Below are positions 14,774-28,028 of a stretch of 62,090 bases of DNA, piece after piece; position 1 is the first letter of the stretch; every line of letters starts with the position of its first letter. The stretch comes from Salinicola peritrichatus (lineage in GTDB: Bacteria; Pseudomonadota; Gammaproteobacteria; Pseudomonadales; Halomonadaceae). Below the pieces are notes generated by a model, which was not told the DNA's origin, did not search any database, and saw only the letters and a program-made list of their open reading frames with translations. Both the position numbers and the translations under genes were made by a program. The DNA is taken from the NCBI RefSeq assembly GCF_003206715.1, contig NZ_PZJU01000066.1:1-62090 (forward strand), given 5' to 3'.

Positions 14774-15463
14774 TTACCTACTATTACCGGTTGTCTGAAT
14801 CTCGAACCCCTCTCGCCAGGGGTGGGTCGACAGCATGATTTTCCAGCCGCTGCCGTTGCATCGGGCATAGCTGATTTCCATCCCGGCGCGCAGGCGCAGG
14901 GTCTCACTATCCAGTGTTTGCGGTGCAGCGAGCAGATCGTGGGTCTGCGGCAAAGCAAGGCGAGGCACGATTGACATGGCGTGATCACCCCATTGCAGCC
15001 AGCGCGGCAGGCCGTCCGGGCCGAGACATGTCCGCTCTGCGCCGCCGGCATCCGCTTGGCGCACCCACAGCTCGCGATAGCGCCCTTGGGGATGACGTTC
15101 CTCCAGCGTATCTTCGTCAAGAAACGCCATTTCGCCGACGTCTTTCCCCAGTCCCGGATGCTGATCGAGCAAACGATGCCAGGTACAGAAGCGGCCCTCG
15201 ACCCGGGTGATGCCGGCAAAGGCGGTCTGGCCGGCCAGCCATACGAGCCGATCCCGGTCGCAGTCGTCCAGCGACGTGACGTCGGCGAAATCGGGGCGAT
15301 CCGCCGGCACGCGCATGTCGGCGTGCCAGCATGCCGCCTGCAGCCAGATCACTCGGGTCGTGCGGTCCTCTATGTAATCGCCATGTTCACCCTCGCCAGT
15401 GTAGAGCGTGCGTTGCCATACCCCGTGATAACGGGATGGCACGCCGTCTTGTGGTGTGTTCAT
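14774..15463 (-). CDS. Unrecognised protein, last gene of the guanidine operon
   Basis: A 229-residue soluble protein with no signal peptide or membrane helix. It is rich in aromatic residues and in predicted beta strands (GVWQRTLYTGEGEH, TRVIWLQAACWHADMRVP, FAGITRVEGRFCTWHRLLD), which looks like a lipocalin-type barrel, but this is only an impression. It overlaps the oxygenase gene by 4 bp (ATGA), so the two are translationally coupled and probably act together. I cannot assign a function. A short inverted repeat (AATAGTA/TACTATT, 14762-14786) lies across its 3' end. Confidence 0.75.
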   Translation of the reverse strand: MNTPQDGVPSRYHGVWQRTLYTGEGEHGDYIEDRTTRVIWLQAACWHADMRVPADRPDFADVTSLDDCDRDRLVWLAGQTAFAGITRVEGRFCTWHRLLDQHPGLGKDVGEMAFLDEDTLEERHPQGRYRELWVRQADAGGAERTCLGPDGLPRWLQWGDHAMSIVPRLALPQTHDLLAAPQTLDSETLRLRAGMEISYARCNGSGWKIMLSTHPWREGFEIQTTGNSR

Positions 15464-16536
15464 GCCCGTTCCGTTCCCTTGTGTCGCGCATGCTGACCCA
15501 GTGTGGCGGTATCTCTCGCCCCTTCGGGTAATTGGATCTCACCACTGGCCAGACACTTCTGCAGATAAGCGAAGGTGTGAATGGTCTGGGCGTAGAGATG
15601 ATCCCCGGCCTTGAGCGGCTCGTAACGCGCGTGTCCGTCACGCTCGACCAGTTGCGGCAGCGGTGTCACCGTGGTGGCGTAATCGCAGGCGAAGAACAGC
15701 GGGAACGAATAGCGCTCCTCCTTCACCTTGCGTACCCGGTGCGAGGTGGCCACGAACTCGCCGTTGGTCCAGATCTCCAGCATGTCGCCGATGTTGATCA
15801 CCAGGGCATCGTCGCGGTAGGGCACGTCGATCCACTCGCTCTGGCCGTTCATCACTTCCAGCCCCGGAGCGGTGGGCAGCAGCAGGGTGAAGCACTCGTA
15901 ATCGGTGTGCGCGCCGATGCCCTGGACATCCTCGGCCTCGGGATCGAACGGATAGTGGATCAGGCGCAACTGGCTGGGTGGCTTGGTCACGTCCTTGAGG
16001 AAGTGCTCTTCGGGCAACCCCAGCGCGAGGGCGAAACCTCGCATCAGGGCGAGGCCCACCTCGTAAGTCACCTGGTAGTAGGCATAGACCTGCTCGCGGA
16101 AGCCGGGCAACTCGGGCCAGACGTTGGGTCCCAGCATGGGGATGCCGGCGACTACGTCCGGGTCATCGGCGGGCAGCTCGAAGGCCAGATCGAAGGCTTC
16201 CTTGAGGTCACGCTTGCCCTTTTCGGGCATCTCCTCGCCTTCGGGCACGTAGCCGCGATGGCGGGTAGTGCCGTTGCCCGCGGACAGCCCGATATAGTGG
16301 CGCATCTTGGTCTCCATCGGCTGGGCGAAGAATCGCCTGGCCTGGTCCAGAAGGGCTTGGCGCAGATCTTCGTCGATGCCGTGGCCGACGATATGGAAGA
16401 AACCCACGTTGCGTGCCGCGTCGCCGAGCTGTACGGCGACGGCCTGGCGTTCGTCTTCATTGGGACTGAAGAGCCCGCCGATATCGATCACCGGCAGTGA
16501 CTGGAAATGACTGAGTTGCTGCTTTGCATGGCTCAT
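15460..16536 (-). CDS. 2-oxoglutarate/Fe(II) oxygenase, isopenicillin N synthase-like
   Basis: A 358-residue member of the large IPNS/plant 2-ODD family: N-terminal LPVIDIGGLF and GFFHIVGHGID, then the double-stranded beta-helix with iron ligands H210 and D212 (GAHTDYE) and H266 (ATSHRV), and the 2-oxoglutarate-binding R275-x-S277 (RYSF). The start has CAGGAGA upstream. It lies 18 bp after the allophanate hydrolase gene and overlaps the next gene, so it belongs to the riboswitch-controlled guanidine operon. Enzymes of this superfamily (ethylene-forming enzyme, plant homoarginine-6-hydroxylase) can liberate guanidine from arginine-type substrates by carbon hydroxylation; that role here is inference from context. 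Confidence 0.88.
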   Translation of the reverse strand: MSHAKQQLSHFQSLPVIDIGGLFSPNEDERQAVAVQLGDAARNVGFFHIVGHGIDEDLRQALLDQARRFFAQPMETKMRHYIGLSAGNGTTRHRGYVPEGEEMPEKGKRDLKEAFDLAFELPADDPDVVAGIPMLGPNVWPELPGFREQVYAYYQVTYEVGLALMRGFALALGLPEEHFLKDVTKPPSQLRLIHYPFDPEAEDVQGIGAHTDYECFTLLLPTAPGLEVMNGQSEWIDVPYRDDALVINIGDMLEIWTNGEFVATSHRVRKVKEERYSFPLFFACDYATTVTPLPQLVERDGHARYEPLKAGDHLYAQTIHTFAYLQKCLASGEIQLPEGARDTATLGQHARHKGTERA

Positions 16537-16554
16537 GGCTGTCTCCTGGTTCGA

Positions 16555-18372
16555 TCACTGCTGGCTGGCGATCCAGCCTCTCCAACCGCCGAAATGGGTC
16601 ACATCCTCGGCCGGGCCACCCGCCTCCAGGGCGCCCGCAGTGCAGATGAAGCCGCATTGCCACTCGCCGTTTTCCAGCTCGACTTGTCCTAGTCCCAGTG
16701 GGGCGGGAATGCCGGCCAGGAAGCTGCCGATGGTGTCGATGGGCAGACGCCACACTTCCACCTCGATGGCCGCGCCGTTGGCGTCGTCTCGCACCATCGC
16801 CGGGCGCGCCGGCGGGCCGCCGGCCAGGGCATAGAGGCGGTAGTTCGGGCTGCTGCGGGTGCTGGCGACACGCACGCCGCCGCGGCTGGTGAGCTGGTGG
16901 TTGAGCGGCAGCCCGGCAAGGTGCGCGCCGCATACCACCAGTTCCAGCGTGCCGTCCTTTGCCGGGGGCAGTGCCGGCAGCTGGGGGCGGGCGATGCTGG
17001 TGGCGCCCAGCGGCAGAACGAGCCGGCGCTCCAGTGCCCGGCCGAGACTCAACAGCGACAGATCATCAAAAGCGGGGCCGAACAGGGTGACGCCGAACGG
17101 CAGGCCGGCATCGGTGAAGCCGGTGGGCACGGCCAGGGCACTGTAGTCGAGCAGGTTCATGAAGTTGGTCCAGGTTCCCACTCGCGAGTTGACGGCAATG
17201 GGCTCTGCAGCCACCTCGGCCTTGGTGGGATGTTCCACCGTGGTCGGGGCCAGCATCACGTCGACCTGAGCAAGCAGAGCATCGGCCTGGCGCTTGAGTT
17301 CGGCCAGCTTGTAGCGGGCGTCGAAAGCATCTACCGCCTTGGGTGCGCCGCCGCCTTCGATGACCTGACGGGTGGCCGGATGCAGGGTATCGGGCTGGCT
17401 TTCGATCAGTTCGCGCACGGCGTGGTAGCGCTCGGCGACCCACGGGCCTTCGTAGAGCAGGCGCGCCGCGGCCAACAGTGGCGTGCAATCGAGTTCGAAC
17501 CTGACGCCGCCCAGTGCCTCGAGTTGGGCAATAGCCTGGCGCATGCCAACGCTGTAGGCCGCGTCGGTATGCCACTGCGACTCGGGCGGCACGCCGAAGC
17601 GAAAGCGCTTCAGCATCTCGCCATAGGCTTGGCCGGCCACGGCGAAATCGTGACGCCGCGACCAGGCGCACTCCGGATCGTACTGGCCGGCGACGTCGAG
17701 CACGGCGGCGGCATCGTCGGCGCTCAAGGTGAAGAGGCTGATGGTATCCAGAGTGGCACAGGCCGGTACCACGCCCGCCGTACTCAGCAGGCCCAGCGTG
17801 GGCTTGACGCCGAACAGGTTGTTGAAGCACGCCGGCACGCGTCCGGAGCCGGCAGTGTCGGTACCCAGCGCGAAGCTGACCTGGCCCTGGGCGGTGGTCA
17901 CCGCCGAGCCGCTGCTGGAGCCGCCGGGAATGCGCTCGGCATCGAAGGCATTGCCGGGCACGCCATAGATGTCCAGCGCACGTTCGCCGACCAGCCCGGT
18001 AGCGAACTGGTCGAGATTGGTCTTGCCCATGGGGATGGCCCCGGCCTCGATCAGCTGGCGCACGACGAAGGCGGACTCATTGGGCGTATAGGCATAGACG
18101 GGACTGCCCGCCGTAGTCGGCACGTTCGCGAGATCGATATTGTCTTTGATCGCGAACGGAATGCCGTACAATGGAAGGCTCTGCGGATCGATGGCGTCGA
18201 GACGAGCGAGATAGGGCTCGAGCTGCTCGCGTGAGAGCCGGGTGATCCAGGCGGGATCAAAGCCGCGTGCTGCGGCATCGGCCAGCAGATCAGCGATCAG
18301 CCCGCGTGGGGTCAGCTCATTGGCGCGATAGCGCGCCAGCAGAGAAGTCATGGTCATATCGATGGCGCTCAT
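16555..18372 (-). CDS. atzF: Allophanate hydrolase
   Basis: A 605-residue amidase-signature enzyme hydrolysing allophanate to ammonia and CO2. The Ser-cisSer-Lys triad is recognisable as K76 (FAIKDNID), S152 (PGGSSSGSA) and S176 (TDTAGSGR), with spacings matching AtzF. A C-terminal domain (about residues 460-605, VCGAHLAGLPLNHQL onward) is the decarboxylating domain of two-domain allophanate hydrolases. The start at 18372 overlaps the carboxylase stop as ATGA; the frame extends to 18573 but that part lies inside the carboxylase gene. It completes the carboxylase-deiminase-hydrolase guanidine route, or a urea amidolyase route. Confidence 0.92.
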   Translation of the reverse strand: MSAIDMTMTSLLARYRANELTPRGLIADLLADAAARGFDPAWITRLSREQLEPYLARLDAIDPQSLPLYGIPFAIKDNIDLANVPTTAGSPVYAYTPNESAFVVRQLIEAGAIPMGKTNLDQFATGLVGERALDIYGVPGNAFDAERIPGGSSSGSAVTTAQGQVSFALGTDTAGSGRVPACFNNLFGVKPTLGLLSTAGVVPACATLDTISLFTLSADDAAAVLDVAGQYDPECAWSRRHDFAVAGQAYGEMLKRFRFGVPPESQWHTDAAYSVGMRQAIAQLEALGGVRFELDCTPLLAAARLLYEGPWVAERYHAVRELIESQPDTLHPATRQVIEGGGAPKAVDAFDARYKLAELKRQADALLAQVDVMLAPTTVEHPTKAEVAAEPIAVNSRVGTWTNFMNLLDYSALAVPTGFTDAGLPFGVTLFGPAFDDLSLLSLGRALERRLVLPLGATSIARPQLPALPPAKDGTLELVVCGAHLAGLPLNHQLTSRGGVRVASTRSSPNYRLYALAGGPPARPAMVRDDANGAAIEVEVWRLPIDTIGSFLAGIPAPLGLGQVELENGEWQCGFICTAGALEAGGPAEDVTHFGGWRGWIASQQ

Positions 18373-21300
18373 ACGGACGTCTCCAGATTCGAGGTCTGTT
18401 CGAGAATCACGATCGGCTGGCCGGGGGCGACGGCGGCACCTTCGGTTATCGGCAGGCGGGCCACGCGACCGGTTGCGTGAGTGGTGATCTCGACTTCCAT
18501 CTTCATCGACTCGACCAGTGCCACGACCTGACCGGCCTCGACGCTGTCGCCCTCGGCGACCGTCAGCTTCCACAGGCTGCCGGTCACCGGGCTATCGATA
18601 CCCAACTCATCGCTACCCAGTTCCGTGGCCTCGGCGACTTCGGGGATCCGGTCCTCGAAGGTGAACTGGCCATTGGCCCGCCAGTCGGCCATCTCCTGCT
18701 GGAAGGCGGCCTCGCGACGCTCACGGAATTCGGCGATCTGTTCAACGTGAGCGGCGATATCGTCCTGATAATCGGCAAGCTTGAAGCGCGTAACCTCGAT
18801 CTCGAGCGGGTATCGCCCATGGGGAAAGTCACGACGGATTCGCATCAGCTCGTCATGGCTGACCTCGAAGAAGCGCAACTGATCGAAGAAGCGCAGCAGC
18901 CAGGGGTTGTCGAAGTATTCGGTCTGGCGATAGCGGTTCCACATCTGCAGGGTGCGGCCGACGAACTGATAGCCACCAGGGCCTTCCATGCCGTAGACGC
19001 ACAGGTAGGCGCCGCCGATGCCCACCGAATTCTCGGCGGTCCAGGTGCGCGCCGGGTTGTACTTGGTGGTGACCAGCCGCTGGGTGGGATCGAGCGGCGT
19101 GGCCACCGGCGCGCCGAGGTAGACGTCGCCCAGGCCCATCACCAGATAGCGGGCGTTGAAGACGATGTCGCGCACCTGCTCGATGGCGTCTAGGCCATTG
19201 ATGCGACGGATGAACTCCAGGTTGCTCGGGCACCAGGGTGCATCCGGACGAACGCTGCGCTGGTACTTGTCGATGGCTTTCTGACAGGCCGGATCGTCCC
19301 AGGACAGCGGTAGGTGCAGGGTGCGCGCCTCGACTTCCAGCGACTCGACGTCGTGAAGCTCGCGCTCGGCGCGCTGCAGGTGGGCGAGCAGTTCGTCGAC
19401 GATGAGTTCGTCGGGCTCGTAATGGATTTGCAGCGAGCGAATGCCCGGCGTCAGCTCGCGCAGGCCAGGCAGAGAGTTGTGCTGTAGCCACAGCATCCAG
19501 GCATGGGCGCGAAAGCGCAGCGCGATGTCGAGTTCCATGGCGCCGAACTCGACCAGCAGGAAGTCGTCGCCGGCGCGGCGGTAGACGATGCGCTCACCGG
19601 CGTCCTTTGCAGGCACGTCGCGCAGGATGGGGCTGCCGCGATTCTCTTCGACGGCCACGGCCGGCTGCTCATTCAGCGACGCGAGCAGGGCCTGCTGGCG
19701 AGCCTCCAGTTGCCGGGCAGTAGCCAGATCCACCGGCACGAAGTGGATACGGTCACCGGCCGTGAGCTGACCGAGCTTCCAGCGTTCGGCGCGCACCACC
19801 GTGGCCGGGCAGACGAAGCCGCCCAGCGAGGGGCCGTCGGGGCCGAGAATCACCGGCATGTCGCCGGTAAAATCGATGGTACCGAAGGCGTAGGCATTGT
19901 CATGGATGTTCGACGGATGCAGGCCGGCCTCGCCGCCGTCGGCGCGGGCCCACTCGGGTCGCGGACCAATCAGGCGCACGCCGGTGCGGCTCGAGTTGTA
20001 GTGCACCTCCCACTCGTGAGCGAAGAAGGTGTCGATATCGTCCTCGGTAAAGAAGTCCGCCGCGCCATGGGGACCATAAAGCACCGCGATCTGCCAGACA
20101 TGGCCGTTCTCGCCACCAAGCTCGGGTCTGAGCGTCTCGGGCAGTGCGCGGGGTGTCGTGGCGTCGAGTTCGGGCAGCGAAAGCATGTCGCCGCTGCGTA
20201 GGGCGCGCCCACCGTGGCCGCCGAACTGACCGAGGGTGAAAGTGGCTCTGGAGCCGAGATAGCGCGGGCAGTCGATGCCGCCGCGTACCAGCAGGTAGGC
20301 GCGCGCTCCGGCACTGGCCTTGCCCAGCGTCAGTGTGGCGCCGGCGGGAATGTCCAGAACCTGCCAGAAAGCCACGGCCTTGCCGTCGAGTTCGGCGGGC
20401 AGTTGGCTGCCGGCGAGTACGATCTGGGTGGCGCGATGGAAACGCAGCGTGGGGCCGGTGAGCGTGATCTCGAGTCCGGCGGCATCGGCCGGATTGTCGA
20501 GAAGGCGGTTGCCAAGACGGAACGACCAATCGTCGAATGGACCGGAAGGTGGCACGCCGACGTCCCAGTGACCCTGGCGGCCGGGATGATCCTGGATGGT
20601 GGTTAGAGTGCCGGCACTGAGTACCTCGATGGCCGGCGGCGCCCAGACAAGATCGGCCAGCCAGCGGGTATGCATAATGGCATCGTGGAAGCGCGCATCG
20701 TGCAGCACATGCGACAGCCAGGTACGGTTGGTCTCGAAGCCATAGATGCTGGACTGCTCTAGCACTTCGGCCAGACGTTCGATGGCCATGTCGCGGTCGT
20801 CGGCGTGGACGATCACCTTGGCCAGCATGGGATCGAACAGCGCCGAGACTTCCAGTCCCGCTTCGATGGCGTGATCGACGCGCAGGCCGGGCGCTTCAGG
20901 GAAGGCTACCTCAGTGAGCAGGCCGGCGCTGGGGCGGAAACCGTGGCTGGGATCTTCGGCATAGAGACGCGCCTGGATGGCGTGGCCTTTCGGGGTGAGA
21001 TTTTGGGCCAGTTCGTCGAGTTCGGGCAGCTCGCCAGCGCCGAGGCGGATCATCCACTCGACGATGTCCACGCCCCACACCTCCTCGGTGACCCCATGCT
21101 CCACCTGCAGGCGGGTATTGACCTCAAGGAAGTAGAAGGCTTCGCGCTCGGCATCGTAGATGAACTCCACGGTGCCGGCATTGCGGTAATCGACGGCTTC
21201 TCCCAAGCGCACGGCGGTGGCGTGCAACTCCTGACGCACGCGCTCGGGCAGATCGGGGGCAGGACACTCCTCGATCACCTTCTGGTGGCGGCGCTGGGTG

Positions 21301-21992
21301 GAACAGTCGCGCTCGCCGAGCGCCACGACCTTGCCTCGGCCATCTCCGAACAGTTGCACTTCCAGGTGACGGGCGCGGGCGATGTAGGCTTCGAGAAATA
21401 CGCCGGCGTCTCCGAAGTTGCGCTCGCCGAGCCCGCGCACCGAGTCGAAGGCGCGCTGCAAAGCGGCTTCGTCGTCACACACCTGCATGCCGATACCGCC
21501 ACCACCGGCGGTGGACTTGAGCATCACCGGATAGCCAATGCGCGCTGCCTCCCTGACGGCATCCTCGACGCTGTCGAGCAGGCCGGAACCCGGTACCAAG
21601 GGCACGCCGGCACGCTCGGCCAGGTCGCGCGCCTTGTGTTTCAAGCCAAAGTCGCGGATCTGTTCGGGCGTCGGGCCGAGGAATACCAATCCGGCCTCCT
21701 CGCAGGCCTGGATGAAGCGAGTGTTTTCGGAAAGGAAGCCATAGCCGGGATGCACCGCCTCGGCTCCGCTCTGTCGGGCGATGTTAACCAGCTTGTCGAT
21801 ATCAAGATAGGTGTCGGCGGCGCCACCGTCGCCGAGCGAGTAGGCGGCGTCTGCCTGGAAGACGTAGGGTGCATCGCGATCGGCTTCGGCGTAGACCACG
21901 ACCGAACCGATGCCAAGCCGCTTCAGCGTACGCTGGACCCGTGCAGCGATCGCGCCGCGATTGGCGATCAAGACCTTGTTGAACATGAGCAT
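18369..21992 (-). CDS. Biotin-dependent guanidine carboxylase (urea carboxylase family)
   Basis: A 1207-residue ATP- and biotin-dependent carboxylase. Order: biotin carboxylase domain (FNKVLIANRGAIAARV, GGGGIGM ATP loop, FLEVNTRLQVEHGVTE), KipA/KipI-type carboxyltransferase domain (about 470-1050), and C-terminal biotinyl domain with ESMKMEVE, biotin attached at about K1164. Close family members act on urea or on guanidine. The guanidine-I riboswitch and the two deiminase subunits upstream argue for guanidine, giving carboxyguanidine. Sequence alone cannot separate the two without alignment of the substrate pocket. The start could also be Met3. It is preceded by a 97-bp gap containing a 7-bp GC hairpin at 22035-22052. 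Confidence 0.9.
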   Translation of the reverse strand: MLMFNKVLIANRGAIAARVQRTLKRLGIGSVVVYAEADRDAPYVFQADAAYSLGDGGAADTYLDIDKLVNIARQSGAEAVHPGYGFLSENTRFIQACEEAGLVFLGPTPEQIRDFGLKHKARDLAERAGVPLVPGSGLLDSVEDAVREAARIGYPVMLKSTAGGGGIGMQVCDDEAALQRAFDSVRGLGERNFGDAGVFLEAYIARARHLEVQLFGDGRGKVVALGERDCSTQRRHQKVIEECPAPDLPERVRQELHATAVRLGEAVDYRNAGTVEFIYDAEREAFYFLEVNTRLQVEHGVTEEVWGVDIVEWMIRLGAGELPELDELAQNLTPKGHAIQARLYAEDPSHGFRPSAGLLTEVAFPEAPGLRVDHAIEAGLEVSALFDPMLAKVIVHADDRDMAIERLAEVLEQSSIYGFETNRTWLSHVLHDARFHDAIMHTRWLADLVWAPPAIEVLSAGTLTTIQDHPGRQGHWDVGVPPSGPFDDWSFRLGNRLLDNPADAAGLEITLTGPTLRFHRATQIVLAGSQLPAELDGKAVAFWQVLDIPAGATLTLGKASAGARAYLLVRGGIDCPRYLGSRATFTLGQFGGHGGRALRSGDMLSLPELDATTPRALPETLRPELGGENGHVWQIAVLYGPHGAADFFTEDDIDTFFAHEWEVHYNSSRTGVRLIGPRPEWARADGGEAGLHPSNIHDNAYAFGTIDFTGDMPVILGPDGPSLGGFVCPATVVRAERWKLGQLTAGDRIHFVPVDLATARQLEARQQALLASLNEQPAVAVEENRGSPILRDVPAKDAGERIVYRRAGDDFLLVEFGAMELDIALRFRAHAWMLWLQHNSLPGLRELTPGIRSLQIHYEPDELIVDELLAHLQRAERELHDVESLEVEARTLHLPLSWDDPACQKAIDKYQRSVRPDAPWCPSNLEFIRRINGLDAIEQVRDIVFNARYLVMGLGDVYLGAPVATPLDPTQRLVTTKYNPARTWTAENSVGIGGAYLCVYGMEGPGGYQFVGRTLQMWNRYRQTEYFDNPWLLRFFDQLRFFEVSHDELMRIRRDFPHGRYPLEIEVTRFKLADYQDDIAAHVEQIAEFRERREAAFQQEMADWRANGQFTFEDRIPEVAEATELGSDELGIDSPVTGSLWKLTVAEGDSVEAGQVVALVESMKMEVEITTHATGRVARLPITEGAAVAPGQPIVILEQTSNLETSV

Positions 21993-22089
21993 CTGCTCGA
22001 CCAGGGGCGGGTCGTCCCGCCTGCTTTAGATGTTCGCGAGGTCGTCCTCGCGTCACCTGGGCGTTATCAGAAAGCGCCAGGGGTGAAAC

Positions 22090-22758
22090 TTAGTCCCAGA
22101 CCAACACTTCCAGCGGCGTCGGGTTGAAGCCGCTGCAAGGGTTATTGAGCTGCGGACAGTTGGAGATCAGCACCACTACGTCCATGGCAGCTTCCATCTC
22201 CACGTACTTGCCCGGCCCGGACAGCCCGTCGGCAAACGACAGCCCCCCTTCCGGCGTCACCGGAACATTCATGAAGAAATTGATGTTGTGGGTGATGTCA
22301 CGCTTGGTCAGGCCGAATTCCGGATAGTTGGCGATGGCCTGCATCCAGTTGTCCCGGCAGGAGTGCATGTGGCGCTTCTCGAGATCGTAGCGCACAGTGT
22401 TGCTCTCGCTGGCGCAGGCACCGCCCAAGGTATCGTGACGACCGCAGGTGTCGGCGGTGATCGTCAGCATCAGATTGCCGTCGCTGGAAAGCAGCCGGGA
22501 ACCGGTACCCAAGTAGATCTGGCCCTGCTCGCGCACGGTATCCATGGCGCTGTAGCGTTCCGCCGTATCGTGGGCGTTGAAGAACAGCGTGTCCGCCGCC
22601 TCGTTGCCCTCGACATCGACCAGCCGCAGCGTCTGTCCAGCGCGGACGATGCCGATGTAGTGGTCTCCGGCCTCGACGAGGCGACGGAAAACCGCGTTTT
22701 CCACCCGCAAGGGGCTTTCCAGCAGTGGGCGGAGCAGCGCAGTCGTGGTAAGGCTCAT
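22090..22758 (-). CDS. cgdB: Carboxyguanidine deiminase subunit B (urea carboxylase-associated protein 2)
   Basis: A 222-residue DUF1989-family protein. Conserved features are the [17 protein letters not shown] segment, the [20 protein letters not shown] segment with Cys/His metal ligands, and the [14 protein letters not shown] motif. With CgdA it hydrolyses carboxyguanidine to allophanate and ammonia, linking the carboxylase to the allophanate hydrolase. The Met at 22758 lies just beyond the cgdA stop; the frame to 22845 is inside cgdA. Older annotations call it urea amidolyase-associated protein UAAP2. Confidence 0.87.
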
Positions 22759-22759
22759 G

Positions 22760-23509
22760 TCAGGCTCCCTGCAGGCCGAGATGGTAGAGACGGTTGTTGG
22801 CGAAACCGCGGGCATTTTCCGGACAGGCGCGATAGCAGACATCATCCTCGCCGGGCGCGGGCGCCACGCCGAGGGCGATGTCGACGCCGCGATGCGGGTA
22901 GGCTTCGCTCGGAACCAGCGGATGGGGGCAAGTGTGCAACAGCACTAGTGTGTCCATCTCGAAACGCAGCGTTACGCGCTGTCCCGGCTGGCAGTGACCC
23001 GACACGTAACGCAGTTGCCCCGCATCGTCACTTTCCACCTTGCTGAAGAGATTGAGGTTGGCAGCCATGTCGCGCCGCCCCAGTCCATACTTCGCCAGCT
23101 CGATCAGAAAACTGTCGTGGCCAGTCTGGGGCCGCTCATTGAGCGCCTGCTGAAAGCTCACCGGTTGCCAGCCCTTGGCGATCATATGCGCACGGTTGAG
23201 GTTGCCGCCGACGCTATCGTGCCAACCTAGATCGTCCTCGATGATCGAGGCGAAGATTCGCCCCATATCGGAGTAGAGGCAGTTCCCTCGAGTCAGCTTG
23301 AAGGTATGCTGGCACTTGAGAGTATCCGGCAGATTCAGCCGCTCGAGCAGATTCTCCGGGTTGTAGCAGAGCAGCCCGACGTTGGTATCGGCTTCGCGTG
23401 CAGTCAAAGAAAGCGTGGTCCCGCGGCGCAGGCGCAGTGACCAGTGCTGACCGCCGGGAAGATGAGTGCTGTAGTACGCGTCGTCCCGAGGTCGCAGAGG
23501 ATTTGTCAT
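22760..23509 (-). CDS. cgdA: Carboxyguanidine deiminase subunit A (urea carboxylase-associated protein 1)
   Basis: A 249-residue DUF1989-family protein that pairs with CgdB. Landmarks are [35 protein letters not shown], and [14 protein letters not shown], followed by [16 protein letters not shown] near the C-terminus. Its start overlaps the stop of the ABC ATPase gene by 4 bp. In characterised guanidine operons the two paralogues form a heteromeric zinc-type deiminase acting on carboxyguanidine. The paralogue order A then B before the carboxylase matches those operons. Confidence 0.87.
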
Positions 23510-24321
23510 AACGGCGTCTCCTGGTGTGTCTGTGTCCGTCGTTCGCTCATCGCATCGACGGTCCTGGCCAGGTCTTCCGGTGGGCGCCGGTTCTCGCCGA
23601 TGGCCAGGTCGTAGGTGATGGTAGCGCCATAGGCCTCGGGGGCCTGTGGATCATGGCGGATCTTGTCGAAGACCCATAGCCGCGTGCCAAGGGCGAAGGC
23701 TTCCTTGACGTCGTGAGTGATCATGAAGATGGTCAGTTGCTGCTCCCGCCAAAGTCGGGTGATCAGCACATGCATGTCCTGACGGATGCCCGGATCGAGG
23801 GCCCCGAAAGGCTCGTCGAGCAGCAGGATTCTAGGCTGCATCATTAGGGCCTGGGCAATGGCCAGGCGCTGCTGCATGCCGCCGGAAAGCTCGTGGGGAT
23901 ATTTGTGCAGAGCGTGAGTGAGTCCGACTTCTTCGATACGCGCTGTCGCGGCCTCGGCGGCACGACGGCGTGCGCTGCCGAACAACTTGCCAAGCCAGCG
24001 TGAGCCGGCCAGCTCCTCGGCCATCATCACGTTGCCAAGCACGGTCAAGTGCGGGAAGACCGAATACTTTTGGAACACTACGCCGCGATCCGGCCCCGGC
24101 TCGTCCGGTAGCGGCCGTCCATCCAGCGTCAGTTCGCCGCGCGAGATCCGCTCCGTGCCCAGCAGCAGCTTGAGAAAGGTCGTCTTGCCGCATCCGGAAG
24201 CACCGACCAGAGTGATGAACTCCCCGGCCTCGACGCGGAAGTCGATGCGCTCCAGCACCACCTGATTGCCGTAGCGCTTCTCCACGCGACGAGCCTCAAG
24301 CAAGTTCTTGGGATGACTCAT
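23506..24321 (-). CDS. NitT/TauT-type ABC transporter ATP-binding protein (guanidine import)
   Basis: A 271-residue ABC ATPase: Walker [10 protein letters not shown] (about residues 37-45), signature LSGGMQQR, Walker [13 protein letters not shown] and the switch His in ITHDVKEAF. The nearest groups are nitrate, sulfonate and taurine importers. It overlaps both neighbours by 4 bp, so it is strictly part of the guanidine operon, where an uptake system of this type precedes the deiminase genes. Guanidine or a guanidino compound is the inferred cargo. Confidence 0.9.
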
Positions 24322-25145
24322 TCCCGATCTCCCGCTTCAGCGTGGTACCAGGGGAAGGAGCGTCGCGAAATCAGGGCCAGAACCCGGTCGATCACGAAGG
24401 CCAACAACGTGATCCAGGCCACATAGGGCAGGATCACATCCATGGAGAGATAGCGGCGCACCAGAAAGATGCGGTAGCCCAGGCCGTCTTGGGCGGCGAT
24501 CGCCTCGGCGGCGATCAGGAACAACCAAGCACTGCCCAGCGCCAGACGAGTCGAGTCGATCAGCCGCGTGGTGAGCTGCGGCAACAGCACCCGGGTCAGC
24601 GCCTGCCAGGAACTCGCCCCCAGGGTCTGCGCCTTGATCAACTGCTCGTCAGGCAGGCGCAGAGCGTAGTTTTGCAAGTCGCGGATCAGAAATGGCGCCA
24701 CGCCGATGACGATGAGCGCGACCTTGGCCATCTCGCCGGTGCCGAAAGCGATGAACAGAATCGGCAGAATGGCCATGGGTGGAATCAGCGAAACTACCGT
24801 GACCAGCGGCGAGAGTTTGGCTCGAACCAGCGGCAGCCCACCGGTGAATAGACCGACAATCAGACCAATCAGGGCGCTGATGGCAATACCCAGACCCAAG
24901 CGTTCGAGACTGGCGAAGGTGTCGTCCCACAGGGGAATGGTGCCGGTGCGCACGCTGGCTTCGGTCGCCAACTGGCTGAAGGTGTCGGCCATGGTTGCGG
25001 GCGAGGGCAGTAGGCGGTCATCGGGGTTTTCCGCGAGACGAGCGTTGGACAGGGCCAGATAGACCATCGCCACCAGTGCGAAAGGTACCAGACCCAGCAG
25101 CCAGCGGCTGCCGCGGGACGGGGTGTAGTTGATGAGTCGCTTCAT
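24318..25145 (-). CDS. NitT/TauT-type ABC transporter permease (guanidine import)
   Basis: A 275-residue inner-membrane permease with six hydrophobic segments (for example WLLGLVPFALVAMVYLAL near the start) and the coupling loop around IKAQTLGASSWQALTRVLLP. It pairs with the adjacent ATPase, with which it overlaps by ATGA. It follows the binding-protein gene after a 75-bp gap holding a small hairpin. Confidence 0.9.
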   Translation of the reverse strand: MKRLINYTPSRGSRWLLGLVPFALVAMVYLALSNARLAENPDDRLLPSPATMADTFSQLATEASVRTGTIPLWDDTFASLERLGLGIAISALIGLIVGLFTGGLPLVRAKLSPLVTVVSLIPPMAILPILFIAFGTGEMAKVALIVIGVAPFLIRDLQNYALRLPDEQLIKAQTLGASSWQALTRVLLPQLTTRLIDSTRLALGSAWLFLIAAEAIAAQDGLGYRIFLVRRYLSMDVILPYVAWITLLAFVIDRVLALISRRSFPWYHAEAGDRE

Positions 25146-25184
25146 GGTCGGTATCCGTCGGTTGATTGGCGTGCGTGCGCGGCG

Positions 25185-25202
25185 CTGCCCGACTCCGGGC
25201 AG
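25185..25202 (-). other. Hairpin between binding-protein and permease genes
   Basis: CTGCCCG (25185-25191) and CGGGCAG (25196-25202) form a 7-bp perfect stem with a 4-nt loop in the gap between the substrate-binding protein gene and the permease gene. There is no U tract. It may set a higher level of the binding protein than of the membrane part. Confidence 0.45.
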
Positions 25203-25220
25203 ACCGCGACGAGTCGACGG

Positions 25221-26270
25221 TTATTGTTGGGCGATGTAGTCCTCGGTGTAGGTCGGGTCGAAGCGCAGCTTGACGTTGCCTTCGTCGCCGAACGTGCCGG
25301 CCGGCGTCTGGATGCCGATGTAACCGGGGTTGGGCGCCATGTCGCCGAGCAGGCCGTGCTCGAAACTGAACTCGGCGACGTGCTGCATGGTGTCGAGCAG
25401 GTCCTGGCCGTGCATCAGCGAGGCGGCCTGGGTGGGGTCGGTGTAGAGGTGGGTGTCGGCCAGTTGTGCCTTGTAGCCGGCGAGGTCGGTGCCCGCGGCC
25501 TCGGCCATCTGCGTCAATGCGGCCTCGTCGCCGGCGGCGACCTTGTCCATGACCTCGTACCAGGCGCCGACCAGGGCGCGGCCGAGATCTGGGTTGGCCT
25601 TCAGGGTGTCGGTATTGACCACCATCATGTCGAGGATCTCGCGCGGCAATTGCTTCGAGGTGAACACCACATGGCTGTCGGGCAGGTCCTCGATGGCACC
25701 GAGCTGGGGATTCCAGGTAACGACGGCTTCGACGTCGTCGTTGGGGTAGATCGCGACCATGTCGGCATCCGAGGTATTGACCGTCTCGATGTCGCGTTCG
25801 GTGAGGCCGACCGTCTCCAGGGCCCGTGCCAGGAAGTAATGCGAGACGCTGAACTGCACCAGGTTGACCCGGCGGCCTTCGATGTCGGCGAGATCGTCGC
25901 TGCCCTTGAGCACGATGCCGTCGTTGCCGTCGGAATAGTCGTTGATGATCAGCGCTGTGGAGTCGACGCCGCTGGCGGCGGGCAGGGTCAGGGCATCCAT
26001 GTTGGTCATCGCGCAGCCGTCGACGTTGCCGGCGGTGTACTGGTTGATCGACTCGATGTAGTCGTTGACCTGCACCAGATCGATATCGATACCGTACTTG
26101 TCGGCCCACTTGTCGACGATGCCTTGGGTGTCGGCATAGCTCCAGGGCATCCAGCCGGCGTAGATGGACCAGCAGACGCTGAAGTGATCGCGGGACTGGG
26201 CAAACGCGGGTGCGGTGGTCGCCAGCAGCGTGGCGGAGAGAACGGCAGTCAGAATACGGCTTGGGCGCAT
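25221..26270 (-). CDS. NitT/TauT-type periplasmic substrate-binding protein (guanidine import)
   Basis: A 349-residue exported protein with a signal peptide (MRPSRILTAVLSATLLATTA, cleavage after AFA near residue 24). The mature part has SVCWSIYAGWMPWSYAD, a typical ligand-binding start, and the TAGNVDGCAMTNMDAL segment of the nitrate/taurine-binding family. The aromatic-rich first loop (WSIYAGWMPW) could form a cation-binding box suited to guanidinium. GGAGG lies seven bases upstream of the start. It is first gene behind the guanidine-I riboswitch, so its expression should rise with guanidine. Confidence 0.9.
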   Translation of the reverse strand: MRPSRILTAVLSATLLATTAPAFAQSRDHFSVCWSIYAGWMPWSYADTQGIVDKWADKYGIDIDLVQVNDYIESINQYTAGNVDGCAMTNMDALTLPAASGVDSTALIINDYSDGNDGIVLKGSDDLADIEGRRVNLVQFSVSHYFLARALETVGLTERDIETVNTSDADMVAIYPNDDVEAVVTWNPQLGAIEDLPDSHVVFTSKQLPREILDMMVVNTDTLKANPDLGRALVGAWYEVMDKVAAGDEAALTQMAEAAGTDLAGYKAQLADTHLYTDPTQAASLMHGQDLLDTMQHVAEFSFEHGLLGDMAPNPGYIGIQTPAGTFGDEGNVKLRFDPTYTEDYIAQQ

Positions 26271-26325
26271 GATTGGCCTCCAATGGGTTGACTAAGCGGT
26301 CGGGGGCATCGGTGCGTACGCACCT

Positions 26326-26456
26326 TATCCTCCCGGGCTTTTGTCCCGCCGTGTAACCTTCGCCGTTGGCCTCATAGGGCCAGTCGCCGCGGGTCGACAG
26401 CTCTCGGACCAGGCACTACATCGGGGCAATGATGATGCAGCCGGAACCCTAGCTAT
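26326..26456 (-). promoter_or_regulatory. Guanidine-I (ykkC) riboswitch
   Basis: Reading the minus strand, the conserved blocks of the ykkC aptamer appear in order: CTAGGGTTCCG (26443-26453 region), then TGGTCCGAGAG (about 26401-26411), then ACACGGCGGGACAAAAGCCC closing with CCGGGAGGA (about 26328-26354). This is the class that binds guanidinium and turns on guanidine genes. A 14-bp palindrome GGTGCGTACGCACC (26311-26324) just after the aptamer may belong to the expression platform; no U-tract terminator is visible, so control of translation or of an atypical terminator is possible. The binding-protein start codon lies 56 bases further on. Confidence 0.95.
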
Positions 26457-26680
26457 CCATTGAAGACCGAATTGTTTGGCAGACGCGCTGCCGATACCCC
26501 TGTCGTTGTTATCACAAGAGTTTATACAAAAATCTTGCCATTATTTAAAAAGTAAATATTTAACAAATACTTACTAAACATCTGGGATTAGTCGAGCTGA
26601 TTCTTACAACAATTTAAGCTTTGTGCGCACCACACTGGCGCGCAACACTGACCAGCCGCACCAATTCGGCACAACCCTGC
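26457..26680. promoter_or_regulatory. AT-rich spacer upstream of the guanidine riboswitch
   Basis: No gene is seen between the riboswitch and the stop of the SMR pair. The stretch 26515-26625 is much richer in A and T than its surroundings, with several runs of A and T, and should hold the operon promoter reading leftward. No clear pair of -35/-10 hexamers could be fixed. Confidence 0.4.
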
Positions 26681-27010
26681 TCACCCACTTACTTTCAGCC
26701 CCACCACGGCGACGATGATCATGCCGACGAAGGCGAGCCGGAGTGGGCGGCGAGACTCGCCCCAGAGCAACATCCCCATCAGCGTGCTGCCGAGCGTGCC
26801 GATGCCGGTGAAGATAGCGTAGGCCACGCCCATGTCAATCGAACGCATGGCGATCGATAAAAACCCCAGCGAGATGCCGAAACCTGCGATGAGGAGTAGC
26901 AGGCCGTGTAGGCGCTGGCCCCGATGAAGGCGCTCGAAACCAGCCACGCCGACGATTTCGAAGCAGCCCGAGGCCAGCAGCGCGAGCCAGTGAAGCGTGG
27001 TGATATCCAT
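26681..27010 (-). CDS. SMR family transporter subunit, YkkD-like
   Basis: A 109-residue four-helix protein (MDITTLHWLALLASGCFEIV at the start, with the conserved Glu in CFEIVGVAGFE at about residue 18). The sequence MRSIDMGVAYAIFTGIGTLG is the SMR third-helix motif. It is most like the YkkD partner of two-component SMR pumps, and its start overlaps the stop of the first subunit by one base (TGATG), which supports a heterodimer. Its C-terminal half is duplicated as a remnant at 14492. Family members export guanidinium or quaternary ammonium compounds by proton antiport. Confidence 0.88.
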   Translation of the reverse strand: MDITTLHWLALLASGCFEIVGVAGFERLHRGQRLHGLLLLIAGFGISLGFLSIAMRSIDMGVAYAIFTGIGTLGSTLMGMLLWGESRRPLRLAFVGMIIVAVVGLKVSG

Positions 27011-27327
27011 CAGTCGCCCACCTGCTGCAGTCCGATCACGCCGATCAACAGCAGGGCGATGAATGCCAGCACCGGCCAATGGAAGGCGACGCCGAAGAAC
27101 ACCCAGTCGGCAATCGCGGTGCCCGCCGCACCGAGGCCGACGAAAATCGTGTAGACCGTACTGGTCGGCATGTAGCGTACCGCACGGGAAGCGAGCCACA
27201 GGCTGGTCACTGCCAGCGTGATCGTCAGCAGCCATCCCGCCAAGGTCTCGGCATGCTTCAGCCCGGTTGCCCATCCGACTTCGGCCAACCCGGCCAGCGG
27301 CAGTATGCTCCATTGTGCTCGAATCAT
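27010..27327 (-). CDS. SMR family transporter subunit, YkkC-like (Gdx/SugE side)
   Basis: A 105-residue four-helix protein. GLAEVGWATGLKHAE near the N-terminus carries the Glu14-type residue and the W..GLK pattern typical of guanidinium exporter (Gdx/SugE/YkkC) SMR proteins. The third helix has PTSTVYTIFVGLGAAGTAIAD. It is the first gene of the pair and lies 27 bp from a perfect operator, so it is probably repressed by the divergent TetR protein. Guanidinium or guanidinylated compounds are the most likely cargo given the neighbouring operon. Confidence 0.87.
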   Translation of the reverse strand: MIRAQWSILPLAGLAEVGWATGLKHAETLAGWLLTITLAVTSLWLASRAVRYMPTSTVYTIFVGLGAAGTAIADWVFFGVAFHWPVLAFIALLLIGVIGLQQVGD

Positions 27328-27372: not shown

Positions 27373-27440
27373 TATTTTGACCCATCTCACTTGGCAAGCT
27401 AGTGCAGACTAGGCGACCACCATTGGAAGAAGACTCCACC

Positions 27441-28028
27441 TTGAATACCCGTGACCGTCTCAAACACATCGGCCTTTCGCTGTTCGCCCGCCATGGCTAT
27501 GAAGGCACCAGCCTGAGCCAGATCGCCGATGCCGCCGGCATCAAGAAGCCCTCGATTTACAACCATTTCGAGAGCAAGGCGGCACTGTTCCTCGAACTCG
27601 CGAGTGATGCCGAAAACGATATCCTGGCGCTGGTGGAAGCGAGTCTGGCCCAGCATGCGCAAGCACCTTACGCGGAGCGGCTCCGGCATCTGGTCGAGAG
27701 TTGCTGCGCCTTCTCTTACCGTGAGCACCAAGGCGTGTTCTACAAGCGCTTCCTGCTGTTCCCACCCCAGGAGTTGAGTGCCCAGGCGGAGGCAATCACC
27801 CGTCGCGGCGAGACATTGCTAGACGAGCGGTTGACTCGCTTTTTCGAACAGGGGCGTCAATCCGGCGTGCTGCGCAACGAATTGACGGCCCGCCAGTTCA
27901 ATGCTGCGCTATACTGCTTGGTGGATGGCCTGCTGTCGGAGACTTTCATGTATGAAAGGGATGAGCTCAACCAACGCTTCGAAGGCGTCTGGTCGGTATT
28001 CTGGGCAGGTGTGAAGGCCGGCGGATGA
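27441..28028 (+). CDS. TetR family transcriptional regulator
   Basis: A 195-residue regulator. The helix-turn-helix occupies about residues 10-50 (GLSLFARHGYEGTSLSQIADAAGIKKPSIYNHF...), typical of TetR; the all-helical C-terminal domain binds the unknown ligand. I take the TTG at 27441 as start, behind GGAAGAAG; a TTG at 27423 and a GTG at 27402 are in frame but start before the conserved domain. It is divergent from the SMR pair and shares its operator. Confidence 0.86.
   Translation: MNTRDRLKHIGLSLFARHGYEGTSLSQIADAAGIKKPSIYNHFESKAALFLELASDAENDILALVEASLAQHAQAPYAERLRHLVESCCAFSYREHQGVFYKRFLLFPPQELSAQAEAITRRGETLLDERLTRFFEQGRQSGVLRNELTARQFNAALYCLVDGLLSETFMYERDELNQRFEGVWSVFWAGVKAGG

What the first reader, a model, noticed from the sequence alone, without database searches (positions are those of the whole stretch)
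14774..26456. Riboswitch-controlled guanidine operon extended by a 2OG oxygenase and an unknown protein
One minus-strand transcript appears to run from a guanidine-I riboswitch through importer, cgdAB, carboxylase and allophanate hydrolase into two genes outside the described pathway. Small gaps and ATGA overlaps (18372/18369, 15463/15460) argue for a single operon. The extra pair could supply guanidine from a guanidino compound and so widen the substrate range of the pathway.
Basis: partly seen in the sequence, partly recalled or inferred. Interest (0 to 1): 0.85.

Follow-up and report, generated by a model that had tools for sequence, protein, structure and literature searches.

The report
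Methylguanidine-to-guanidine operon with two riboswitches
This bacterial operon almost certainly lets its host use methylguanidine as a nitrogen source: an oxygenase and a helper lyase strip off the methyl group and the guanidine that is left is broken down to ammonia; this was published in 2025 for a relative, but the same lyase family turns up elsewhere beside a quite different kind of oxygenase and a creatinine enzyme, for which I found no description.

Summary
A minus-strand operon runs from a guanidine-I riboswitch through importer, cgdAB, gca and atzF into a 2OG oxygenase and a protein without a Pfam match. The two 'extra' genes match mgdH (methylguanidine hydroxylase) and mgdL (N-(hydroxymethyl)guanidine lyase), shown biochemically in Vreelandella boliviensis (PMC12508155). 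Of 151 family genomes, 10 have a close MgdL; all 10 have MgdH beside it and both riboswitches. The window differs from V. boliviensis chiefly in gene order. Verdict: new member of a known kind.

Following MgdL outward gave something I found no report of. Of 32 loci found with a divergent MgdL subgroup (mostly Burkholderiales), 27 carry a desaturase-type hydroxylase instead of MgdH; 24 of the 27 have guanidine-I upstream (the other 3 lack sequence there) and 24 have creatininase. D49/R51 stay in 30 of 32; the two that lost them have no guanidine riboswitch nearby and no gca match. Against a tight pair: in 8 of 10 class genomes with the desaturase, MgdL is not beside it. A model of MgdL resembles yeast YLR301w.

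The parts
26328..26463 (-). Guanidine-I riboswitch aptamer heading the operon
   Evidence: RF00442, 77.1 bits, gathering 63; the only guanidine-I match found in the genome
25221..26270 (-). Periplasmic substrate-binding protein of the (methyl)guanidine importer
   Evidence: TIGR03427 491.6 bits, cut-off 333.9; the substrate is inference
24318..25145 (-). ABC permease
   Evidence: PF00528
23506..24321 (-). ABC ATPase
   Evidence: PF00005
22760..23509 (-). UAAP1, carboxyguanidine deiminase subunit (CgdA/B type)
   Evidence: TIGR03425 283.8 bits, cut-off 205.95
22090..22845 (-). UAAP2, carboxyguanidine deiminase subunit; longest ORF, the real start is probably the Met near 22758
   Evidence: TIGR03424 322.4 bits, cut-off 284.7, match from residue 51; the start is inference
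22007..22053 (-).
   Evidence: RF01068, 43.4 bits, gathering 32
18369..21992 (-). gca, guanidine carboxylase (1207 aa)
   Evidence: TIGR02712 1787.2 bits; D707 and D956 at the K. lactis 1330 and 1584 positions, the criteria given in PMC11410670 (passage)
16555..18372 (-). atzF, allophanate hydrolase
   Evidence: TIGR02713 726.3 bits, cut-off 511.05
15460..16536 (-). mgdH, 2OG/Fe(II) methylguanidine hydroxylase
   Evidence: PF14226 + PF03171; 71% identical over 99% to the protein P0011 named V. boliviensis; HTD at 210 and RYS at 275
14774..15463 (-). mgdL, N-(hydroxymethyl)guanidine lyase
   Evidence: No Pfam or NCBIfam match at E 0.001; D49 and R51 kept; adjacent to mgdH in 10 of 10 family genomes with a close MgdL

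Best explanation
A guanidine- and methylguanidine-assimilation operon. The ABC importer brings in the compound (inferred). MgdH, an Fe(II)/2OG oxygenase, hydroxylates the methyl group of methylguanidine; [quoted passage not shown] Gca, CgdAB and AtzF turn guanidine into ammonia and CO2; formaldehyde is probably taken by a glutathione-dependent dehydrogenase encoded elsewhere. The guanidine-I riboswitch presumably admits transcription of the operon when guanidine is present, and the internal guanidine-II riboswitch, which in V. boliviensis binds methylguanidine as well as guanidine, presumably admits expression of gca and what follows. The enzymatic and ligand-binding steps were shown in V. boliviensis (PMC12508155); for this window they are inferred from homology and gene order.
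For: MgdH 71% identical to the V. boliviensis protein P0011 and grouping with operon-linked oxygenases in a midpoint-rooted tree (support only 0.62). MgdL keeps D49 and R51 (57 of 57 closer relatives aligned, window included), whose mutation abolished the lyase effect in PMC12508155. Both riboswitches above gathering score. Gca has both signature aspartates. In 10 of 10 family genomes with a close MgdL, MgdH is adjacent and the operon has guanidine-I upstream and guanidine-II before gca. A formaldehyde dehydrogenase equivalog lies in the same genome (TIGR02818, 736.6 bits, cut-off 543.95; 3 of 14 control genomes also pass that cut-off).
Against: No measurement in this organism. Gene order differs from V. 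boliviensis (mgdHL after atzF). The pair is accessory: 10 of 151 family genomes against guanidine-I in 30 of 151, and only 2 of the 18 own-genus genomes listed. No terminator-like site follows the guanidine-I aptamer here, and the fold of that leader is not significantly stable (z -1.09), so how it acts in this species is unclear.
Confidence: 0.93

Rival explanations
1. The oxygenase acts on a larger guanidino compound (arginine, homoarginine, agmatine), releasing guanidine from an unstable hydroxylated product, as ethylene-forming enzyme or plant 2-ODD-C23 do; MgdL is a bystander.
For: The best PDB sequence match of the window oxygenase is a 2OG-dependent ethylene/succinate-forming enzyme (9ovh, E 1.2e-60); PMC12508155 states that such enzymes release guanidine from arginine.
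Against: V. [quoted passage not shown] its full compound list is in a supplement I did not see). MgdL keeps the residues needed for N-(hydroxymethyl)guanidine lysis and is beside MgdH in 10 of 10 family genomes with a close MgdL.
Confidence: 0.05
2. mgdHL is a passenger at the end of the operon that is poorly expressed or has its own regulation, and the operon is an ordinary guanidine operon.
For: The pair is accessory (10 of 151 family genomes with a close MgdL, 30 of 151 with guanidine-I) and sits in two different places in the operon.
Against: 4-nt overlaps and an 18-nt gap, no terminator-like site between atzF and mgdH, intact frames and conserved motifs; in V. boliviensis all operon proteins rise on guanidine and methylguanidine (PMC12508155).
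Confidence: 0.02

Closest known systems
mgdH-mgdL methylguanidine operon of Vreelandella boliviensis (Sinn et al. 2025, PMC12508155)
   Same: Same kinds of gene (three ABC genes, cgdA, cgdB, gca, atzF, mgdH, mgdL), guanidine-I at the head, guanidine-II before gca, catalytic D49/R51 in MgdL
   Different: In V. boliviensis mgdHL lies between gca and atzF; in the window and 3 relatives (L047-L049) it follows atzF. The window has a same-strand pair of SMR genes upstream that was not found at E 1e-8 in the stretches fetched from 9 relatives
Ordinary guanidine carboxylase operon (Raoultella, Klebsiella; review PMC12186494, passages read)
   Same: Importer and carboxyguanidine deaminase under guanidine-I, gca and allophanate hydrolase under guanidine-II
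   Different: No mgdH or mgdL mentioned there
Desaturase-type hydroxylase + MgdL cassette of Hydrogenophaga and other Burkholderiales (this work, among loci L075-L104)
   Same: MgdL family with D49/R51, guanidine-I riboswitch, NMT1-type binding protein, a gca-type carboxylase in the genomes tested
   Different: No MgdH; FA_desaturase-superfamily protein instead; creatininase, SDRs, MBL-fold hydrolase added in most; MgdL only 31-46% identical to the window's in local alignments
[quoted passage not shown]
   Same: A dedicated enzyme that splits a hydroxylated intermediate made by a partner oxygenase
   Different: No sequence homology according to that paper
Yeast YLR301w (PDB 3rby; the name Hri1 is recalled)
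   Different: 14% identity; the MgdL profile matches no PDB chain by sequence at E 10; the PDB title calls it uncharacterized

Membership tests
MgdH-MgdL methylguanidine demethylation operon | 2OG/Fe(II) oxygenase related to V. boliviensis MgdH | tested here: met
   71% identity over 99% to P0011, named V. boliviensis; that P0011 is the paper's accession was not checked; HxD and RxS motifs present
MgdH-MgdL methylguanidine demethylation operon | MgdL with catalytic Asp49 and Arg51 | tested here: met
   D49 and R51 in the window; 57 of 57 closer and 38 of 38 more divergent sequences in the alignment. V. boliviensis MgdL itself was not aligned under its own name
MgdH-MgdL methylguanidine demethylation operon | Both genes in a gca operon under guanidine-I and internal guanidine-II | tested here: met
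MgdH-MgdL methylguanidine demethylation operon | Methylguanidine hydroxylase and N-(hydroxymethyl)guanidine lyase activity | not testable with these tools
   Needs purified enzymes
Guanidine carboxylase (against urea carboxylase) | Asp at K. lactis 1330 and at 1584 | tested here: met
   Window D707 and D956 by the alignment with 5i8i and residue check; criteria from PMC11410670 (passage). Position 1584 was counted by hand past one gap, from an alignment whose end was cut
Guanidine-I and guanidine-II riboswitches | Covariance-model score above gathering threshold | tested here: met
   77.1 against 63; 43.4 against 32
Guanidine-I and guanidine-II riboswitches | Ligand-dependent control of expression | not testable with these tools
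   In-line probing or a reporter is needed; for V. boliviensis see PMC12508155
Yeast YLR301w (Hri1)-like proteins | Similar fold | tested here: met
Yeast YLR301w (Hri1)-like proteins | Recognisable sequence relation | tested here: not met
   No Pfam match at E 0.001; MgdL profile matches no PDB chain at E 10. Fold resemblance only, not filed as a member

The most novel reading that the evidence does not exclude
MgdL belongs to a wider family of lyases that split N-(hydroxyalkyl)guanidines, recruited independently by non-homologous hydroxylases. In Burkholderiales and Stutzerimonas a guanidine-I riboswitch controls a cassette in which a membrane di-iron (fatty-acid-desaturase-type) hydroxylase takes the place of MgdH, and creatininase and dehydrogenases feed it, giving a creatinine-to-guanidine-to-ammonia route different from the classical creatinase pathway (the latter recalled). 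A third version, in the window's own family, pairs a divergent MgdL with a divergent 2OG oxygenase, a PhyH-type oxygenase and another ABC importer, with no guanidine riboswitch found in the three loci scanned.
Probability: 0.4. Interest if true: 0.75.

Novelty: new member of a known kind. Interest (0 to 1): 0.42.

Why it matters
For the window: it adds one more species, with a different gene order, to a pathway described in 2025 and shows the two-riboswitch layout in the window and in 9 of 9 close relatives. Beyond it: if the desaturase-type hydroxylase and MgdL jointly demethylate methylguanidine or a creatinine derivative, the open question raised in PMC12508155, where natural methylguanidine comes from (the authors point to creatinine), becomes directly testable, and guanidine riboswitches would be tied to the breakdown of a major vertebrate waste product. 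A structural link to yeast YLR301w would suggest chemistry to test for an uncharacterized protein.

Tried and rejected
Arginine, homoarginine or agmatine as substrate: set aside because the characterised orthologue responded only to methylguanidine and N,N-dimethylguanidine in the paper's screen.

A link of the upstream SMR pair (27327-26681, -) with a riboswitch: none was found before it at E 1, and the pair was not found at E 1e-8 in the stretches fetched from 9 relatives; not taken as part of the operon.

Guanidine-I expression platform as intrinsic terminator: no terminator-like site there; fold z-score -1.09; left open.

MgdL and desaturase as an obligate pair: tested from the other side and not upheld. 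Of 10 of 369 class genomes with the desaturase subfamily at E 1e-40, MgdL was in the same stretch in 2 (L115, L118); one more (G363) has it on another contig; a guanidine-I pattern was in 4 stretches (L115, L118, L160, L166) and gca in 2 (L164, L166). Two of these stretches are short (L115 8.0 kb, L161 9.1 kb). L116 has MgdL in a gca operon, and I found no hydroxylase in the eight frames scanned; L117 has MgdL with both catalytic residues beside genes not known for guanidine metabolism.

Literature: I saw no report of a desaturase or creatininase gene under a guanidine riboswitch in searches. Several of these were capped listings (43: 15 of 363 papers; 54: 20 of 1,121; 58: 20 of 226; 60: 15 of 315). 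Of the 5 papers of one search I looked at passages of 3, where the desaturase is NapI. Nelson 2017 and Sinn 2021 are not held. This is not proof of absence. PMC2211319 came up, but its desaturase is linked to a B12 riboswitch (passages).
Full report
What is in the window. On the minus strand a guanidine-I aptamer (26463-26328; 77.1 bits, gathering 63) heads nine genes: an NMT1-type binding protein assigned to TIGR03427, a permease, an ATPase, two DUF1989 proteins (UAAP1 and UAAP2, the CgdA/B pair), a 1207-aa carboxylase, allophanate hydrolase, a 2OG-Fe(II) oxygenase and a 229-aa protein without a Pfam or NCBIfam match at E 0.001. The junctions overlap or are short (75 nt after the binding protein, 97 nt before gca); the atzF-oxygenase gap is 18 nt and holds no terminator-like site. 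In the whole genome guanidine-I was found once and guanidine-II twice. The genome is probably a Salinicola, since the oxygenase of the same-genus genome G120 (L048) pairs with P0004, which a source names Salinicola; this is inference.

The carboxylase is a guanidine, not a urea, carboxylase by the published criteria: aspartate at the positions of K. lactis 1330 and 1584 (PMC11410670, passage read). In the alignment with the yeast enzyme these are window D707 and D956 (residues checked; the second position was counted by hand across one gap).

What the two extra genes are. A search of the open literature found PMC12508155 (Sinn et al., Nat Commun 2025; abstract, introduction, results, discussion and the beginning of the methods read, the rest and the supplements not). 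In V. boliviensis the same kind of operon, with guanidine-I at the head and guanidine-II before gca, carries mgdH and mgdL. MgdH hydroxylates methylguanidine; [quoted passage not shown] D49 and R51 of MgdL are needed; guanidine-I is specific for guanidine while guanidine-II also binds methylguanidine; the strain grows on both compounds. The paper names Salinisphaera and Vreelandella as other carriers.

Membership. The window oxygenase is 71% identical over 99% to the protein P0011 named V. boliviensis, has the HxD and RxS motifs and groups with operon-linked oxygenases (support 0.62, so weak). The window 229-aa protein has D49 and R51; they are kept in 57 of 57 closer and 38 of 38 more divergent sequences aligned (these sets contain near-duplicates and a fragment). 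Of 151 genomes drawn from the family, 12 have an MgdL match; 10 of these are close (E below 1e-55) and 2 (G035, G060) have only a divergent one. All 10 have MgdH adjacent, and in all 10 (window plus L047-L055) guanidine-I lies upstream and guanidine-II before gca. Guanidine-I occurs in 30 of 151, the 10 among them, and carboxylase matches in 35 of 151 (those at 51-54% identity may be urea carboxylases), so mgdHL is an accessory of a third of the riboswitch-bearing genomes. Of the 18 own-genus genomes listed, 2 have MgdL. Gene order comes in two forms: gca-atzF-mgdH-mgdL in the window, L047, L048 and L049, and gca-mgdH-mgdL-atzF in L050, L051, L052, L054 and L055 as in V. boliviensis; in L053 no atzF lies in the fetched stretch. 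A formaldehyde dehydrogenase equivalog is encoded on another contig (TIGR02818, 736.6 bits, cut-off 543.95). The two-riboswitch layout as such is known (review PMC12186494, passages read).

So the window is a new member of a published kind.

Beyond the window: the MgdL family with other hydroxylases. Five loci of the same family carry a divergent MgdL (31-35% identity) directly behind a divergent 2OG oxygenase (43-46%). In the one examined in detail (L059) a PhyH-type oxygenase precedes and an ABC importer with a SBP_bac_8 binding protein follows, with a LysR gene divergent. No guanidine riboswitch was found in the three of the five that were scanned (L056, L058, L059). In one (G010, L060) the oxygenase match is split over two frames.

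Because of the query this samples the divergent subgroup. In 27 of 32 a FA_desaturase-superfamily gene lies upstream on the same strand, in 2 of 32 (both Halomonas) mgdH, in none both; L099 is cut off, and L101 and L102 have neither. The 27 desaturase-type proteins share the motifs IHExAH, KHMRHH, QHTY and HNAHH without exception, as expected for membrane di-iron hydroxylases, and two of them weakly match the arginine hydroxylase model GntB (28.9 and 20.1 bits, far below its cut-off of 380). In L104 (Stutzerimonas kirkiae) the order is riboswitch, binding protein, desaturase, mgdL, permease, ATPase and rubredoxin reductase. In Hydrogenophaga and relatives the full cassette is binding protein, desaturase, two SDRs, EamA, creatininase (TIGR04448, over its cut-off in the two tested, L086 and L093), an isochorismatase-like hydrolase, often an MBL-fold protein, and mgdL. 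Creatininase is present in 24 of 27; the three without it (L087, L094, L104) also lack both SDRs, while L098 has creatininase without SDRs and L096, L097, L100 and L103 have one SDR.

A guanidine-I aptamer stands 1.1-1.3 kb before the desaturase in 24 of 27; the three misses (L080, L088, L095) hold less than 0.8 kb of sequence there. A gca-type carboxylase lies in the fetched stretch in 7 of 32 loci; of 14 further genomes searched, 12 have it and 2 (L101, L102) do not. Those 12 are 56-62% identical to the window's, 5 of them over residues 3-751 only in the best segment, and I did not check their signature aspartates. L091, L096, L100, L103 and L105 show only atzF in the stretch, and the genomes of L079, L080, L087, L088, L095 and L099 were not searched. 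D49 and R51 are kept in 30 of 32; the exceptions are again L101 and L102 (longer alignment for L101), which have no guanidine riboswitch in the stretch and no gca match. That is a small natural control for the link between the catalytic pair and guanidine metabolism.

Results against a tight pair. The desaturase subfamily occurs in 10 of 369 genomes of the class at E 1e-40, with MgdL in the same stretch in only 2 of 10, a guanidine-I pattern in 4 of 10, gca in 2 of 10 and either of the last two in 5 of 10 (the pattern found the riboswitch in 3 of 3 positive controls and in 0 of 3 loci without one). The MBL-fold protein accompanies the desaturase more often than MgdL does (6 of 10). MgdL-type matches occurred in 7 of the same 369 genomes with a divergent query; among them L116 has MgdL in a gca operon without a hydroxylase that I could find, and L117 keeps both catalytic residues without guanidine neighbours. 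My reading of the cassette, that the desaturase hydroxylates methylguanidine or a creatinine-derived N-methyl compound and MgdL releases guanidine, is inference; the order of the steps and the roles of the SDRs, the MBL-fold protein and creatininase are open. I found no report of it, with the limits given under Tried and rejected.

How it works, with status. Shown elsewhere for the V. boliviensis orthologues: hydroxylation, lysis, ligand ranges of both riboswitches, induction of the operon proteins. Shown here: gene content, residues, riboswitch scores, conservation. Inferred: that the window enzymes have the same substrates, that the importer takes methylguanidine, that one message covers all genes, and all of the chemistry proposed for the desaturase cassettes.

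Noticed in passing
   Followed up: yes
window 26681-27327 (-) and 27402-28028 (+): Two SMR transporter genes upstream of the riboswitch on the same strand (the first confirmed by Pfam, the second by eye), opposite a gene that looks TetR-like by eye; no riboswitch before them at E 1.
   Followed up: partly
L066 14705-14753 (-) (own genome, contig C83): Second guanidine-II aptamer of the genome, followed by a decayed SMR-like stretch broken over several frames.
   Followed up: partly
L061 3024-10607 (own genome, contig C91): A paralogue of the oxygenase (57-59% identical to MgdH) without MgdL, beside an amino-acid-type ABC importer, an arginase-family gene, a cytosine/purine-type permease and an aldehyde dehydrogenase; perhaps another guanidino-compound pathway.
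   Followed up: partly
L075-L104; e.g. L086 2919-10747 and L104 7784-13812: Guanidine-I riboswitch-headed cassettes with a desaturase-type hydroxylase and an MgdL homologue, mostly with creatininase and SDRs, in Burkholderiales and a Stutzerimonas.
   Followed up: partly
L056-L060: Second hydroxylase-lyase pair in the window's family (divergent 2OG oxygenase and divergent MgdL beside an ABC importer), without a guanidine riboswitch in the three scanned.
   Followed up: partly
L101 9860-10564 and L102: MgdL homologues of Hydrogenophaga that have lost D49 and R51, in genomes without a gca match.
   Followed up: partly
L163 11300-12142 (+), L164 6780-7664 (+): Related proteins (sugar-isomerase-like by eye, not tested) near the desaturase where MgdL is absent; in L164 on the opposite strand to the operon.
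   Followed up: no
   Followed up: partly
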